From Thermus hydrothermalis (GTDB taxonomy: Bacteria > Deinococcota > Deinococci > Deinococcales > Thermaceae), in the NCBI RefSeq assembly GCF_022760925.1, contig NZ_JAKTNT010000001.1, positions 168,644-232,643 of the forward strand: a DNA stretch of 64,000 nt, in the 5' to 3' direction. Below, piece by piece: positions 56,833 through 64,000 of this stretch. Within the stretch, counting starts at the first letter, position 1. Each line of letters begins with the position of its first letter. The translations under genes were made by a program, and so were the position numbers. Under the pieces are notes generated by a model, which ran no database searches, had not been told where the DNA came from, and saw only the letters and a list, made by a program, of their open reading frames with translations.

Positions 56833-57279
56833 ATGCGTAAGGTACTTATGATTGCCCTTGGCCTTTCCCTCGGCCTCGCCGCCGCCCAAAGCGGCCAGGC
56901 CTTGTACGGCCAGTACTGCGCCACCTGCCACCAGGCGAACGGCCAAGGGGTTCCGGGTGCCTTCCCCCCGCTGGCGGGGCACGTCCAGGAGATCCTGGCC
57001 AAGAAGGGCGGCCGTACTTACCTGGTGGACCTGGTCCTCTTCGGCCTCCAGGGCCAGATCCGGGTCAAGGGCCAGGCCTACAACGGGGCCATGCCCGCCT
57101 GGGGGCCCCAGCTCAAGGACGACCAGGTCGCCGCCATCCTGAACTACGTGGCCAATAGCTTCGGCAACAAGCCCCCTGCGGGCTTCAAGCCCTATACCCC
57201 GGCGGAGGTCAAGGCGGAGCGGGCCAAGAACCTCACCCCGGCTAAGGTCTACGCCCTCCGCCAGGCCCTCAAGCTCTGA
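56833..57279 (+). CDS. Cytochrome c552-like mono-heme protein
   Basis: 148 aa with a signal peptide (MRKVLMIALGLSLGLAAAQ). The heme motif is YCATCHQANGQG, and the axial Met is in YNGAMPAWG. The surrounding GVPGAFPPLAGHVQEILAKKGGRTYLVDLVLFGLQGQI and C-terminal GFKPYTPAEVKAERAKNLTPAKV are close to cytochrome c552 of Thermus thermophilus, the electron donor for ba3 oxidase. It acts in the periplasm. The next gene (regulator) starts on its last base, so it shares the transcript with a two-component system, unusual for a housekeeping cytochrome. Confidence 0.92.
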   Translation: MRKVLMIALGLSLGLAAAQSGQALYGQYCATCHQANGQGVPGAFPPLAGHVQEILAKKGGRTYLVDLVLFGLQGQIRVKGQAYNGAMPAWGPQLKDDQVAAILNYVANSFGNKPPAGFKPYTPAEVKAERAKNLTPAKVYALRQALKL

Positions 57280-57941
57280 TGGGTCCTAGGCTCCTCCTCG
57301 TGGAGGATGACCTTACCCTGGGCCAACTGGTGGTCCAGGCCTTGGAGGCCCAGGGTTTTCACGTGCGCTGGGCCAAGGACCAGGAGGAAGCCTTAGCCTT
57401 CGTTTGGGAGGAGTCCTTTGACCTCTTAGTCTTGGACGTGCGCCTACCCGAGGGCGAGGAGGCGGGTTTCGCCCTGGCCCGCGCCCTGAGGGAGTCCGGC
57501 TTTTCCCTACCCATCCTCTTCCTCACCGCCAAGGATGCCCTCGAGGACCGCCTCGCGGGCCTGGAAGTGGGGGAGGACTACCTCACCAAACCCTTTGCGC
57601 TCCCCGAGCTTCTGGCCCGCACCCGAGCCCTCCTCCGCCGGGGGGAGCTCCGGCCCCGGCGGGTGGAGGTGGGCGATGTGGTCTTGGAGGTGGAGGCGAG
57701 GCGGGTTCTGAAGGGGGGCGTCCCCGTGGGGCTCACCGCCAAGGAGTACCAGGTGCTGGAGCTCCTCCTCCTCAACCCCGGCCGGCTCTTCTCCAAGGAG
57801 GAGATCCTGGAGCGCGTCTGGGGTCCGGACTACGAGGGCAACTCTAACCTGGTGGAGGTCTACGTGAAAAACCTGCGCAAGAAGCTGGGAGAGGGAATCG
57901 TGGAAACCGTGCGGGGCCTCGGCTACCGTGCGCCCGGATGA
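57279..57941 (+). CDS. OmpR-family response regulator
   Basis: 220 aa. Receiver: LLVEDDLTLGQLV, phosphoacceptor Asp in DLLVLDVRLPEGEE, and Lys in EDYLTKPFALPEL. Winged-helix output domain: GLTAKEYQVLELLLLNPGRLFSKEEILERVWGPDYEGNSNLVEVYVKNLRKKLGEGIVETVRGLGYRA. It overlaps the kinase gene (ATGA). The tandem GCTTCAG boxes before the cytochrome gene and inside the kinase gene end are its likely targets; the signal is unknown. Confidence 0.92.
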   Translation: MGPRLLLVEDDLTLGQLVVQALEAQGFHVRWAKDQEEALAFVWEESFDLLVLDVRLPEGEEAGFALARALRESGFSLPILFLTAKDALEDRLAGLEVGEDYLTKPFALPELLARTRALLRRGELRPRRVEVGDVVLEVEARRVLKGGVPVGLTAKEYQVLELLLLNPGRLFSKEEILERVWGPDYEGNSNLVEVYVKNLRKKLGEGIVETVRGLGYRAPG

Positions 57942-59209
57942 GCCTCAGGCTTCGCCTTGCCCTCGCTGCATCCCTCGTGGCCCTCGTGGGTTTGGGGCTC
58001 GGCCTTTTCCTCTCGGCGCTTCTCCTCTCCCGCCTGGCCCTTGCGGAGGTGGACCAAACCCTCCGCCTTCAAGCCAACCTGCTTCTGGAGTCCGCTTTGG
58101 CGGAACCTGACCGCCTGGTCCCCCCGGAGATGGAGGCCGAGGCCTTGGGAGGGGAGTTCCCCGGCGTGGCTTGGCTTTACGTGGACGGGGAACTCCGTTG
58201 GGAGGGTGGGCTGGGCTCGGCCCCCGACCTGTTGCGGACCTATACGGAAACCCGCCCGGCCACCTTGAGCGGGTGGCGGGTGTACGCCCAGGCGAGGGGA
58301 GAATACCGGGTGGTGGTGGCCCAACCCCTGGGCGTGGTGGACCGGCTATCCGCCCTTTTCCTTCGCCTAAGCCTCCCCATCTGGCTGGGCTTGGGCGTCC
58401 TCACGGGCATCCTCGCCTACTTCTTGGTAGGTCAGGCCCTTTGGCCCCTGCGCCGCCTGGCCCAGGGGGCCGAGCGGTTTACCGTGGTGGACCCACCCCC
58501 GGGAAACGACGAGGTGGCCCGGCTCGCCCGGAGCTTCGCCCGCCTCCTCGCCGCCCTCAAGGCGGAACGGGAGCGGGAGGTCCGCTTCCTTGCGCTGGCC
58601 AGCCACGAGCTGAAGACGCCCATCGCCGCTTTCCGCGTGGGGCTAGAAACCCTATTGCGGGCGCGGGAGGTGAACCGGGAAACCCTCGGGCGGCTCAAGC
58701 TCCAGGCGGAGCGCCTCGAGGCCCTGGCGGAAAACCTCCTCGCCCTCTCGCGCGCCCAAGCGCAAGACCTCCGGTGGGAGGAGGTGGACCTGGTGGTCCT
58801 GGCTGGGGAGGTCTTTGACCGCTTCCAGCCCTTGGCGGTGGCCCGGGGCCGGGAAATTCTCTTGGAAACAGAGCCCGTGCTCGTTCAAGCCGATCCCCGT
58901 CTCCTGGAGCGTGCCCTCAACAACCTGGTGCACAACGCCCTGCTCCACGGCCAGGGCACGGTGCGCCTGCGGGTGGGCGTAGAAGGGGGCAGGCCTTTCG
59001 TGGAGGTGGGGGACGAGGGGCAAGGGCCTCCGCCCGGAAGGGCGGAGGGCTTAGGGATGCGGGTGGTGCGCCAGGTGGCGGATGCGCTTGGCGCAGAGAT
59101 TCTTTTGCGCCGCGAGCGGGGGTTTGCCGTGCAGCTCCGCTTCAGGACCGCTTCAGGGTCCTCCGCTTCAATAGGGCCTGGAGCGGATGCTCCGGAGGTG
59201 CGAGGATGA
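57938..59209 (+). CDS. Sensor histidine kinase partner of OmpR-type regulator
   Basis: 423 aa. Two membrane helices (residues about 6-35 and 143-165) flank a periplasmic sensor of around 105 residues. Then a HAMP domain (LVGQALWPLRRLAQGAERFT), H-box LALASHELKTPIAAFRVGLE, N-box NNLVHNALLHG and G-box-like VGDEGQGPPPGRAEGLGMRVVRQVADALG. The C-terminus is encoded by a region with three GCTTCA elements. Its stop overlaps the start of the next secreted protein gene. Confidence 0.92.
   Translation: MSLRLRLALAASLVALVGLGLGLFLSALLLSRLALAEVDQTLRLQANLLLESALAEPDRLVPPEMEAEALGGEFPGVAWLYVDGELRWEGGLGSAPDLLRTYTETRPATLSGWRVYAQARGEYRVVVAQPLGVVDRLSALFLRLSLPIWLGLGVLTGILAYFLVGQALWPLRRLAQGAERFTVVDPPPGNDEVARLARSFARLLAALKAEREREVRFLALASHELKTPIAAFRVGLETLLRAREVNRETLGRLKLQAERLEALAENLLALSRAQAQDLRWEEVDLVVLAGEVFDRFQPLAVARGREILLETEPVLVQADPRLLERALNNLVHNALLHGQGTVRLRVGVEGGRPFVEVGDEGQGPPPGRAEGLGMRVVRQVADALGAEILLRRERGFAVQLRFRTASGSSASIGPGADAPEVRG
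59139..59171 (+). promoter_or_regulatory. GCTTCAG direct repeats inside kinase gene end
   Basis: GCTTCAG at 59139-59145 and at 59150-59156 (11-base period), plus a third copy GCTTCAA at 59165-59171. They lie 35-67 bases before the ATG of the secreted protein gene 59206. Spacing and sequence match the pair upstream of the cytochrome gene. Confidence 0.5.
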
Positions 59210-59753: not shown

Positions 59754-61586
59754 TTACACGAAGAAGACCTTCTCCCGGTCCACCTCCTTCAGGTGGCGCA
59801 CCCCGAGCCTGCCCACTTCCTTCACCAGGCGGTCCGCCAGGTGCAGGGGCGCAGGGAGCCGAGGGAAGGCGAAGCCGCTTGCCGGGTAGAGTCGGGTCAG
59901 GTGATAGATCTGTTCCGCCAAGACCTCTAGGGGTGTGTCCCCTTCTTCGTGCACCAGCTTGAGCGGCCTCGGCGTGCCGCGGAACTCCCGGTGCACGGTG
60001 AGGAGCAAAAACGTCCTGTTCTCTAAGGGCACGAGGAGGCCATCCGAGAGGCTGCCACGGGTGGGGTAAATCCTACCACCCCCCGATTTCCGCACGGATA
60101 CCAGGTCAAAGCCGATCCCTAGCTGCCGAAGCTTCTCCAAAGCCAGGGTGAACTCGTCTTTTGGCAGGAAACCGTCGCGGAGGAGGAGAACCCTGGAGGG
60201 TAGCCTTCCGCTCTTGCGCTTAAAGACGAGAAGGGCTTCCTCCAGGAGGTCCCAGACCACTTCCCCGGGGATGCTTTCCCCCGCTTGCGCCTCGGGAAGG
60301 CTCCAAAGGAGATGCCCGCCATCGCTCCCCACCGCACAGGCCGCACCCCCAAAGCGGAAAGACTTTCTGCCTCCCGCATCGAACCCTACGGCCAGGTCCG
60401 CGGGGTAGGTACCCTTCAGCGCTACCACCTGCAACCCCGCCTTGGCGAGAAGCCCCAGAAGGGCGTTTTCTAGGCGATGGCGCTCTTCTTTTTGGATGGG
60501 GAGGTTGAGGAGCTGGCTCGGGAGCCCCTCCTTTAGGAAGAGGGCCTTCAGGCGGTTGCGCTCTTCCCAAGAAAGGGGTGGGGTCAGAACCAGTACGGCT
60601 TGAACGCCCGCTTCTTTTGCTCTTGCCAGAGCTTCACGAAAGGCGAGGGTTTGGGAAGGGTCCGCATGGATTTCCCGGACATGGAGCCGGGCCTGGCTTG
60701 CCCTAAAAGTATGTTCCAAGGCCCTGAGAAGGAAATCGGGCCATCCTCGAGCCCCGTCTAGGCGGAGGAGGGCCAGGGTGGTTTCCTGAGCCCGGTAAAG
60801 CCCCACGCGTAACGCATCCGCCGGTTTGCCCACCTTCGTTCGGGCCCGAAGCTCGGGCATGCGCATACGGCACGCCCGGGCCTCTACGGGCTTGGGGTGC
60901 TCCACCCCGAGCTTTCGCGCCACCAACAGGGCAACCTTGCGCGTTTCTTCCTGGCGTTGGTTCCAAGGAATAGACAAGACTAAGTTAGATCCCCCTTCTT
61001 CGTGGAGGTCCTCGAGGGTAAGCACCGGAACAAGCAGGCTCGTCAGGTGGGGAATTTCCTTCTTTGCGTCCTTGGCGTTTGCCACCCACGCCACCCGACC
61101 CCATCTTCCATCCCGAATGCGTCCCTTGGAAGCGTGGTACTCCACAAGGCTTAGGCCCCCCGAAAGCAGGATGCTTTTGGGGTCTTCCTCCCCCAGCCTG
61201 AGGAGCTCCCAGGTGCGGCCATCGTAGGTGTTCTTAACCCGCTTGGGTGGGGGGTGACCCTGGGCGAGCCAAGCCTCGAGGGTCCTATCGCAGAGGATCC
61301 GGTAGGTGGGGTCTACCTCCAGGATGATCTCCCCGGCGGCGGAAACCCAAAGGTCTAGGGTTGCTCCTTTAAGCACCCGCCACCCGGAGCCCCGAGCGTG
61401 CTCCTTCCGATAGAACGCCCATCCCTCAACCCAAAAGCCCTTTCCGCGGAGCTGTTCTAGCACTTCCCGAAGGCTGCGGGCCAAGGCGGAAAGGGACCCC
61501 GTTCGGGGGGGTTGCGAGGGTCCAAGGCCCTTCGTGGTTTTGCATTGATAGGTGTTTGGCTGCGGATCTAAAAGCCCAACGGCCAC
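59754..61586 (-). CDS. ago: Prokaryotic Argonaute (TtAgo-like), N domain missing
   Basis: 610 aa, against 685 in Thermus thermophilus Ago. Linker 1, PAZ (LDLWVSAAGEIILEVDPTYRILCDRTLEAWLAQ onward), MID and PIWI are collinear. All four catalytic residues are in place: Asp in AVGFDAGGRKSF (about 403), the glutamate finger in SLPEAQAGE (about 437), Asp in LLLRDGFLPKDE (about 471) and Asp in LHLADRLV (585). Homology begins only near LSALARSL, so the first 100 or so residues (N domain) are gone and replaced by a short unrelated lead. GTG 61586 is the first in-frame start. It is a DNA-guided nuclease family involved in defence and chromosome decatenation. Confidence 0.88.
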   Translation of the reverse strand: MAVGLLDPQPNTYQCKTTKGLGPSQPPRTGSLSALARSLREVLEQLRGKGFWVEGWAFYRKEHARGSGWRVLKGATLDLWVSAAGEIILEVDPTYRILCDRTLEAWLAQGHPPPKRVKNTYDGRTWELLRLGEEDPKSILLSGGLSLVEYHASKGRIRDGRWGRVAWVANAKDAKKEIPHLTSLLVPVLTLEDLHEEGGSNLVLSIPWNQRQEETRKVALLVARKLGVEHPKPVEARACRMRMPELRARTKVGKPADALRVGLYRAQETTLALLRLDGARGWPDFLLRALEHTFRASQARLHVREIHADPSQTLAFREALARAKEAGVQAVLVLTPPLSWEERNRLKALFLKEGLPSQLLNLPIQKEERHRLENALLGLLAKAGLQVVALKGTYPADLAVGFDAGGRKSFRFGGAACAVGSDGGHLLWSLPEAQAGESIPGEVVWDLLEEALLVFKRKSGRLPSRVLLLRDGFLPKDEFTLALEKLRQLGIGFDLVSVRKSGGGRIYPTRGSLSDGLLVPLENRTFLLLTVHREFRGTPRPLKLVHEEGDTPLEVLAEQIYHLTRLYPASGFAFPRLPAPLHLADRLVKEVGRLGVRHLKEVDREKVFFV

Positions 61587-61828
61587 GTGTTTTCTCGTGC
61601 AAGGCCTGCTAGGGAATAAGGAAGCACACGGGCTAACCGTCCCAGTGGGGGCGCCCGAGGGTCATCCCCCGCGACGCCACCTGGAGCAGGAGAAAGCCTT
61701 CTAGAAGGAAATCCGCTTCACTATAGGTGAGGTCACTTACTATTAACCAATATAGAGAAGGGCCTCCTCCCTGGCGTTTAAGGTTCGTGTAAGGGGGCGA
61801 TGGCTAGCCTAGGGGAGGAGGTGAAGGT
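61587..61828. other. Region between ago and lipoprotein gene, possible N-domain relic
   Basis: This is where the Argonaute N domain should be encoded. On the minus strand one frame reads FLLLQVASRGMTLG, faintly like the TtAgo stretch around residue 65, then a stop; no open frame covers it. TATAGT (minus, 61725-61720) and TATAGA (plus, 61751-61756) are possible -10 boxes for ago and for the lipoprotein gene. Confidence 0.35.
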
Positions 61829-63098
61829 ATGCGTTTCCCATGGCAGTCGGTTGTGTTGGGTTTCGGCCTAGCCCTCCTCCTTGCCGCCTGCGGGGGGCGG
61901 GGGGCAGTCGGGGGGAAGCAACGCCAGCACCGTGACGGTTTCCCTCTTGGACCCCGCTGGCGCCCTGGCAGGGGCGTACTACCGGGTTGGTTCGGGGAAC
62001 TGGCAACCCATCAACTTTACGGGGGGACAGTTTGCCTTCCAGGCGAGCGGGCAGTACGAGGTGGTGGCCCGCTGCCGAGGTGAACCGGACCGGATTTACC
62101 ACACCAAGGCCACGCCTTCCCAGCTGAGCCGGGTGGTGGTCCAATGTTCTACCGTAAGTGCAACCCAGGCTCGGGTCACGCTCACCGCCCACCTTCCCTC
62201 TTCCATCGGTGATACCCCGATTGAGGATGGGAGCACGTTGTTGGCAGCTGAGCTTGATGTGAGGTTCTTCCCTTTGCTTGGTTGGGCTCTTATCCCGGAA
62301 AGGGGGCAGGTACAGTCCCGCCAGGCGCAGCTGACTGCGTTTTTCCCTCCTGGTTTACAGGATGTTCTTCTGACACTTATGGGCACAGGCGTTACGGGTA
62401 CAGGCTTTTCCCACTGCTTACAGCCGATTGGGTGGAAGCGGGTACGCCTAGATATTGCGGACGCCCAAAGCTACACGGTGGACGAGAACGGCTGGCAGGC
62501 CTTCCACACCACGCCCTCCATACGCGTTTCCTCTGGTGGAAACCCCAGCACGCCTTGGGCCTACGTGGCCTACTTCAAGGAAGGCATGAAGAGCTTGGGC
62601 TACGTTGGCTTCTCCGACGGTACCACGGATTGCCGCTACGGTACCCTTCCTCCCCAGGAGGGGGGCGTGTACCTGGGCATAGCGGTATCTGCTACAAGCT
62701 TTAGCGAAAGCTCCTTCCAGGCATTTGCCGTCTTGAAGGATTTGCGGGGGCAGGACTGGGTGGTGGAGATGCCTCCGCTTTGGCCAGACGGGGCCTTGAT
62801 CGTTTCGGGTAGCACGGTGACCCTCAGCTATCCGCATGCGCTTAGCTACACCCTCCGGGCGAACGGCTTCCTACAAGATAGGCAGACCCTAACCAACATT
62901 CACCTTTACGCCACCCTGTTCCCAGGGAACGGGGGCGCTGTTTATGCACCTCCCGACGCGGGGGAAGAGCTCGGCTACGTGGTGAACCCTTCCGACACCT
63001 ATTCGGTGGAGGCCTTGGCCTTTCTCCGGAACACCAAGGGCACCTCTCCTTCGGGCCTTTTTGGTCCGGGAGTTTTCCCCGATGAAGCCACCTTGTAG
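61829..63098 (+). CDS. Lipoprotein with frameshift in a poly-G tract
   Basis: ATG 61829 starts a lipoprotein signal (MRFPWQSVVLGFGLALLLAAC, lipobox Cys 21). Right after the Cys are three runs of six G (61892-61897, 61899-61904, 61910-61915). In the present sequence the frame then leads to a stop near 62083; loss of one G would join it to the 400-residue frame SGGSNASTVTVSLLDPAGALAG that runs to 63098. The mature part has Ig-like or carbohydrate-binding features (FTGGQFAFQASGQYEVVARC) and conserved Cys pairs, but no known family. Ribosome site GGAGGAGG is strong. Phase-variable or sequencing/decay effect cannot be separated. Confidence 0.65.
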
Positions 63099-63209
63099 GG
63101 GTTGGATCTCGCCGTCGCTAGCATCTTCGTGGCTCAAGGCGACTGAATCCTCTTTTGCGGGGGCCGAAAGAGGGGCCTACGTGAAGGGCTGAAAGGAAAA
63201 GAATCCTCA

Positions 63210-63245
63210 GGTGCAGGCCACATCTTGGCCCCGCACCTTTCTTTT
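63210..63245 (+). terminator. Terminator of the lipoprotein gene
   Basis: GGTGC-A-GGCC (63210-63219) pairs with GGCC-CC-GCACC (63227-63237), followed by TTTCTTTT. It lies 110 bases after the lipoprotein stop. Confidence 0.65.
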
Positions 63246-63624
63246 GCTCCATTGAGGTCTGAGTTAAGCGGCGGGTACTAGGTGCCAAGCGGTTGTTCGG
63301 GCCAGGCGAAGGAGGATGGAGAAGGGCACCTTTTAGGCTCCTTTGGCAAGGCGGGTAAGTGTGGGGCTTAGGTTAGGGGCCCGGGTATAGGGCCATGACG
63401 CTAGGGGGAGGGATAAAAGCGCCACCTGGGAAGGTGCTGTCCAACCTCGCTACACTTTGAGATGAGTCCCTTTTGTCTTCCCCGATAGAAGGAGGGGCAC
63501 CTCGAGGCTTTCCTCGTGATAACGGCTAACGCACAGGAACCTCGGCACCCATCTTGCTGCCATGTTAGCCGGCAGAAAAGCGCCGAAACCCTGTGCGCCC
63601 GCCCGTGGGAGGGTCCCTTCTAGC
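63246..63624. other. Intergenic stretch without recognisable gene
   Basis: About 380 bases with stop codons in all frames and no convincing tRNA, repeat or coding signal. It is somewhat less GC-rich than the flanking genes. It follows a terminator and lies behind the stop of the convergent RCC1-repeat gene. Confidence 0.4.
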
Positions 63625-64000
63625 CTATGGGGAAGGTGTCCACACGAGAACCCTTTTCGGGCAAGGAGTGTCTGTCGTGTCCCCTGTGCCTAGCTGTCCC
63701 CGGTCGTTTAGGCCCCACGCGTAGAGGGCGAGGTTGCCTCCTTCCTGAACGATTGCCAAGGAGAAATCGTATCCTGCTTTCACCAACACGGCCCCACTAA
63801 GAAATCCCGTGCACCCCCCACCCTTGACCCGCGCCGGCGTGGGGGAGGGGTCGCCCGCGGTGCCCTGGCCTAACTGGCCGTGGTCGTTGCTTCCCCAGGC
63901 CCATACTCCGCCGCTTTGGTCTATGGCCAAATTGTGGGTTCCTCCAGCAGTGACAAAACGGACTTGGGTACCAGAGGGGAAAGGCACGCGTTGGGGTGTG
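63625..64000 (-). CDS. RCC1/BLIP-II repeat protein, N-terminus outside window
   Basis: The frame enters from beyond base 64000 and ends at TAG 63625-63627, giving 124 residues. It shows RCC1 repeats: VTAGGTHNLAIDQSGGVWAWGSNDHGQLGQGTAGDPSPTPARV, followed by VLVKAGYDFSLAIVQEGGNLALYAWGLNDRGQLGTGDTTDTPCPKRV. Such beta-propeller repeats occur in secreted bacterial proteins of binding type. The beginning and cellular location cannot be seen. Confidence 0.8.
   Translation of the reverse strand, partial: TPQRVPFPSGTQVRFVTAGGTHNLAIDQSGGVWAWGSNDHGQLGQGTAGDPSPTPARVKGGGCTGFLSGAVLVKAGYDFSLAIVQEGGNLALYAWGLNDRGQLGTGDTTDTPCPKRVLVWTPSP

What the first reader, a model, noticed from the sequence alone, without database searches (positions are those of the whole stretch)
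59754..61828. Argonaute with intact catalytic tetrad but without N domain
The frame begins at the level of linker 1 of Thermus Ago while PAZ, MID and PIWI with D-E-D-D are well kept. The 240 bases upstream show no open frame for the N domain, only a faint relic. Strong conservation of the active site suggests either a very recent loss or a functional short form. The N domain normally helps part guide and target strands, so a short form could have changed turnover.
Basis: partly seen in the sequence, partly recalled or inferred. Interest (0 to 1): 0.7.

Follow-up and report, generated by a model that had tools for sequence, protein, structure and literature searches.

The report
Broken, 5'-truncated Thermus Argonaute gene
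This is the back end of an ordinary Thermus Argonaute gene whose front end (promoter and N domain) was cut off by a DNA rearrangement and whose first remaining codons are frameshifted, so it is most likely a recently broken gene and not a new working short Argonaute.

Summary
A 610-aa minus-strand ORF (59754-61586) encodes the L1-PAZ-MID-PIWI part of a Thermus long-A Argonaute: 90% aa identity to T. brockianus over the part read in frame, 73% to TtAgo, with the D-E-D-D tetrad intact and no N domain. Comparison with the intact T. brockianus locus gives the cause. DNA homology ends sharply at window 61534 (T. brockianus codon 96). About 1.05 kb beyond it, holding the promoter region and codons 1-95, is missing from the whole genome. 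About 4.8 kb of other DNA takes its place. Just inside the break lie a 1-nt deletion (frameshift) and a 3-nt deletion, so ORF codons 1-17 are foreign DNA, 18-30 are Argonaute DNA read out of frame, and only 31-610 are in frame. dN/dS on this branch (0.17) equals that of the T. brockianus branch (0.19), which fits a recent loss but cannot exclude a working short form. No promoter, Shine-Dalgarno site or N domain elsewhere in the genome was found. Broken ago genes recur in Thermus plasmids. Best reading: a young pseudogene of a known family.

The parts
59754..61586 (-). 610-aa ORF (GTG start): remnant of a Thermus long-A Argonaute gene
59754..61496 (-). ORF codons 31-610 plus stop: Ago body read in the original frame (L1-PAZ-L2-MID-PIWI; TtAgo about 109-685)
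61026..61274 (-). PAZ_3 domain (ORF residues 105-187)
60480..60833 (-). Ago MID domain (ORF residues 252-369)
59808..60554 (-). Piwi domain (ORF residues 345-593) with catalytic D403, E437, D471, D585
61473..61474 (-). 3-nt in-frame deletion relative to T. brockianus (between these bases)
61495..61496 (-). 1-nt deletion relative to T. brockianus (between these bases): frameshift
61497..61534 (-). ago DNA (T. brockianus codons 96-108) read out of frame by the 610-aa ORF (about codons 18-30)
61534..61535 (.). breakpoint: end of homology with the T. brockianus ago locus (pTB1 position 208373, codon 96)
61535..61586 (-). non-ago DNA that by chance supplies the GTG start and codons 1-17
61535..64000 (.). 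visible part of a ~4.8-kb block (to G000:C1 position 234989 = 66346 in window numbering) that replaces 1.05 kb of ago 5' region; holds genes 74-77% like pTB1 194.4-197.9 kb
57279..59209 (+). response regulator and sensor kinase genes downstream of ago, syntenic with T. brockianus pTB1

Best explanation
A young pseudogene of a Thermus long-A Argonaute. SHOWN: relative to T. brockianus, a rearrangement replaced the ago upstream region and codons 1-95 (essentially the whole Pfam N domain) with about 4.8 kb of other DNA, the frame is further broken by a 1-nt deletion about 39 bases inside the remnant, and no N domain remains in the genome. INFERRED: the gene lost its transcription and translation start, so no functional Ago is made. 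The 580 in-frame codons and the D-E-D-D site survive because the break is recent compared with the split from T. brockianus. The mechanism is therefore loss of a plasmid-borne DNA-guided nuclease by ordinary gene decay, as has happened several times independently in Thermus.
For: Sharp end of 89.5% DNA identity at 61534, inside the gene. The missing 1.05 kb is absent from the 99.99%-complete genome as DNA (only stray 30-56-bp hits elsewhere) and as protein, while the same protein queries find the N domain in all seven other ago-bearing Thermus genomes of the set. Frameshift and 3-nt deletion beside the break. No promoter-like site between 61400 and 61900; no Shine-Dalgarno-like motif before the GTG or the internal in-frame starts (judged by eye). 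The block beyond the break holds other broken genes (a phosphomannomutase N-terminal fragment and a lipoprotein gene split by a frame break). Broken ago loci recur on Thermus plasmids: an IS in HB27-derived strains, a frame-broken gene in HB5018, a 3' end cut at an IS in AK1, a 58-aa stub in TF24 and relatives, a 97-aa stub in T. aquaticus.
Against: 580 codons are still open. Branch dN/dS is 0.17, no higher than 0.19 in T. brockianus, and differs from 1 (p 0.007). The DNA break coincides with the end of the Pfam N domain (T. brockianus residue 97), which could look like a clean domain loss.
Confidence: 0.86

Rival explanations
1. A functional N-less Argonaute: translation starts at the GTG (61586) or at an internal start, and the L1-PAZ-MID-PIWI protein still binds guides and cuts or binds targets, with altered duplex handling because the N-domain wedge is gone.
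For: Open frame, D-E-D-D and MID residues intact; dN/dS not relaxed; the 95% limits on branch omega are about 0.07-0.45.
Against: No initiation signals; 30 leading codons are not Ago sequence; not seen in any other genome of the genus set; no N domain in trans as in split AfAgo. The dN/dS data equally allow up to about a third of the branch to have been neutral, so they do not favour function.
Confidence: 0.09
2. An assembly or sequencing artefact: the real genome has an intact ago and the junction is a misjoin.
For: Draft genome of 38 contigs; the neighbouring lipoprotein gene has a frame break in a G-rich run.
Against: The missing ago 5' region is on no contig of a 99.99%-complete assembly. 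The upstream T. brockianus homology resumes at 66347 on the same contig in the same orientation. The ago deletion is not a simple homopolymer slip.
Confidence: 0.05

Closest known systems
T. brockianus Ago (pTB1 A0O31_RS11950, WP_071678161.1)
   Same: orthologous locus, 90% aa identity over the in-frame part, same downstream two-component genes
   Different: T. brockianus is intact: 689 aa with N domain and its own upstream region
TtAgo of T. thermophilus (PDB 3DLB and others)
   Same: 73% identity; PAZ, MID, PIWI and D-E-D-D kept
   Different: TtAgo has the N domain; the window ORF lacks residues 1 to about 108 in frame
Split long-B pAgo, AfAgo with AfAgo-N (PMC10954474)
   Same: an Ago chain without its own N domain
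   Different: AfAgo has an N-L1-L2 partner encoded upstream, lacks PAZ and has an inactive PIWI; here no N-domain partner was found, and PAZ and the active site are present
Decayed ago loci of other Thermus plasmids (pTT27 of HB27-derived strains with an IS, pHB5018b, pAK1b, pTF24b, pTA78)
   Same: disrupted remnants of the same gene family
   Different: different lesions; those examined (L039-L043) are interrupted, frame-broken, cut at the 3' end or reduced to short C-terminal stubs, whereas here a 5' rearrangement leaves a nearly complete body

Membership tests
long-A pAgo (TtAgo type), functional | PAZ, MID and PIWI domains | tested here: met
   Pfam PAZ_3, Ago_Mid, Piwi above cut-off
long-A pAgo (TtAgo type), functional | catalytic D-E-D-D tetrad | tested here: met
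   aligned to TtAgo 478/512/546/660
long-A pAgo (TtAgo type), functional | N domain in the same chain | tested here: not met
   no Ago_N_2 (contrast); DNA homology ends at codon 96
long-A pAgo (TtAgo type), functional | expressed, guide-loaded protein | not testable with these tools
   only indirect: no promoter-like or Shine-Dalgarno-like signal
split pAgo (AfAgo type) | separate N-L1-L2 protein encoded in the genome | tested here: not met
   no N-domain match in own genome, positive in seven other genomes
short pAgo | MID-PIWI only, no PAZ, usually inactive PIWI with an APAZ partner | tested here: not met
   PAZ present and tetrad intact
pseudogene of long-A pAgo | loss of gene parts or frame relative to an intact ortholog | tested here: met
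   5' truncation and 1-nt deletion
pseudogene of long-A pAgo | relaxed selection | tested here: inconclusive
   omega 0.17 vs 0.19; up to about a third of the branch may be neutral

The most novel reading that the evidence does not exclude
A naturally N-less but catalytically intact long-A Argonaute is expressed from a chance start and works as a guide-binding nuclease with changed turnover.
Probability: 0.08. Interest if true: 0.55.

Novelty: new member of a known kind. Interest (0 to 1): 0.16.

Why it matters
It shows one more independent loss of plasmid-borne Argonaute in Thermus, caught early enough that the catalytic domains still look intact. It is a caution that an open frame with an intact active site is not evidence of a working short form. 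If the short form did work, it would be a natural test of what the N domain does in DNA-guided slicing.

Tried and rejected
N-domain relic upstream: tested against shuffles, nothing. N domain elsewhere in the genome (split Ago): nothing. A second Piwi protein in the genome: none. dN/dS as arbiter: not decisive; the T. thermophilus outgroup is near saturation at synonymous sites. AlphaFold2 model of the 610-aa ORF on a 4-row alignment: low confidence (pLDDT 57, pTM 0.37), not interpreted. A first genome-contig scan with the window protein found no relative; the second, with an alignment, found three relatives. The sister genome of the same species (G011) has neither ago nor this region, so it gives no pre-break state. 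The source of the 4.8-kb block was not found beyond its 74-77% resemblance to pTB1 194-198 kb. Paper searches for N-domain deletions of Ago gave no direct TtAgo precedent in the held library.

Full report
What is there. The minus-strand ORF 59754-61586 (610 aa, GTG start) matches Thermus thermophilus Argonaute from about residue 93 to the end at E 1e-283. Pfam finds PAZ_3, Ago_Mid and Piwi but no N domain, whereas intact T. brockianus and T. thermophilus Ago carry Ago_N_2 at residues 26-97. The catalytic D-E-D-D residues and the MID residues checked are all kept. It is the only Piwi protein found in the genome.

How the N domain was lost. The locus is orthologous and syntenic with T. brockianus megaplasmids pTB1 and pTbrSNM4-1b, where ago is intact (689 aa) and is followed by the same sensor kinase and response regulator. 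Over the shared part the DNA is 89.5% identical without interruption up to window 61534, which corresponds to the first base of T. brockianus codon 96, and then homology stops. Genome sequence beyond the window shows that T. brockianus upstream homology (pTB1 207319 and on) resumes at position 66347 in window numbering on the same contig and in the same orientation. About 1.05 kb (pTB1 207320-208372: upstream region and codons 1-95) has thus been replaced by about 4.8 kb. Part of that block resembles, at 74-77%, a gene pair that lies elsewhere on pTB1 at 194.4-197.9 kb. The block also holds a phosphomannomutase N-terminal fragment and a frame-broken lipoprotein gene. The missing ago part is nowhere else in the 99.99%-complete genome; the same protein queries find the N domain in all seven other ago-bearing genomes among the 27 of the genus, so the negative is meaningful.

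The ORF is not simply a shortened Ago. Aligned to T. brockianus, the remnant has a 1-nt deletion at 61496/61495 and a 3-nt deletion at 61474/61473. The 610-aa ORF therefore consists of 17 codons of foreign DNA, about 13 codons of ago DNA read in the wrong frame, and 580 codons in the true frame, starting near TtAgo residue 109. That the in-frame part begins near the start of linker 1 (domain limit from general knowledge of TtAgo) results from a breakpoint plus a frameshift. The region upstream (61535-61834) shows no N-domain relic above shuffled sequence. No promoter-like site is found at 61400-61900, and neither the GTG nor the internal in-frame starts (TTG 61484; GTG 61463, 61376, 61145) have a Shine-Dalgarno-like motif before them (judged by eye).

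Selection. A three-taxon codon model (window, T. brockianus, T. thermophilus) gives omega 0.169 on the window branch and 0.192 on the T. brockianus branch, no difference (p 0.86); omega = 1 on the window branch is rejected (p 0.007). The profile limits on the window-branch omega are about 0.07-0.45, and a two-phase model allows up to roughly a third of the branch to be neutral. Most of the divergence thus arose while the gene was functional; a recent break and a working short form predict the same result. The open frame is weak evidence too, because only about 3% of random substitutions create a stop. T. thermophilus is near synonymous saturation, which limits the model.

Context. Broken ago genes are common on Thermus plasmids: an IS inside ago in HB27-derived laboratory strains, a frame-broken gene in HB5018, a 3' end cut at an IS element in AK1, a 58-aa C-terminal stub in TF24 and five related records, and a 97-aa stub in T. 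aquaticus Y51MC23. Nineteen of the 27 genus-set genomes have no ago match at all, the same-species sister among them. Ago is thus often absent or lost in this genus, and the window adds one more loss event.

Comparison with known kinds. Truncated long pAgos without PAZ are known (PMC6299218). The chain that lacks an N domain in Archaeoglobus is complemented by a separate N-L1-L2 protein (PMC10954474); no such partner was found here. In TtAgo the N domain stacks on the duplex end at guide position 16 and is thought to act in duplex opening and activation (PMC8683029), so loss would be expected to matter; that step is inference. I file this as a young pseudogene of a long-A Argonaute (0.86), with a working short form (0.09) and an artefact (0.05) as rivals.

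Noticed in passing
61829-63098 (+): Lipoprotein-like gene next to the break: its signal peptide and lipobox (ATG 61829) and its main body (from 61881) are in different frames, with a G-rich run between them; the T. brockianus homologue is one frame. Real frame break or homopolymer sequencing slip.
   Followed up: partly
L024:7341-7781 (65341-65781 in window numbering, beyond the window): N-terminal fragment (146 aa, PGM_PMM_I) of a phosphomannomutase with nothing after it: another truncated gene in the block that replaced the ago 5' region.
   Followed up: partly
63625 to beyond the window end (-), L024:5625-6941: RCC1-repeat protein with a lipoprotein-like start, homologous at about 77% DNA identity to pTB1 194.7-196.0 kb, which sits at a different place relative to ago there.
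   Followed up: partly
L039 (NZ_CP144688.1, T. thermophilus HB27-derived laboratory strain): Transposase insertion splits ago on pTT27, in a strain described as delta cmr4 and in a second record (NZ_CP144686.1): laboratory HB27 lines may lack Ago without the user's knowledge.
   Followed up: partly
L042 (pTF24b) and five related records; L043:2992-3312 (T. aquaticus pTA78): Only 58-aa and 97-aa C-terminal stubs of ago remain: repeated erosion of ago in Thermus plasmids.
   Followed up: partly
L011:7380-9101 (T. brockianus SNM4-1): The two-component genes next to ago are annotated shorter than in strain GE-1 (945 and 456 bases against 1272 and 663).
   Followed up: no
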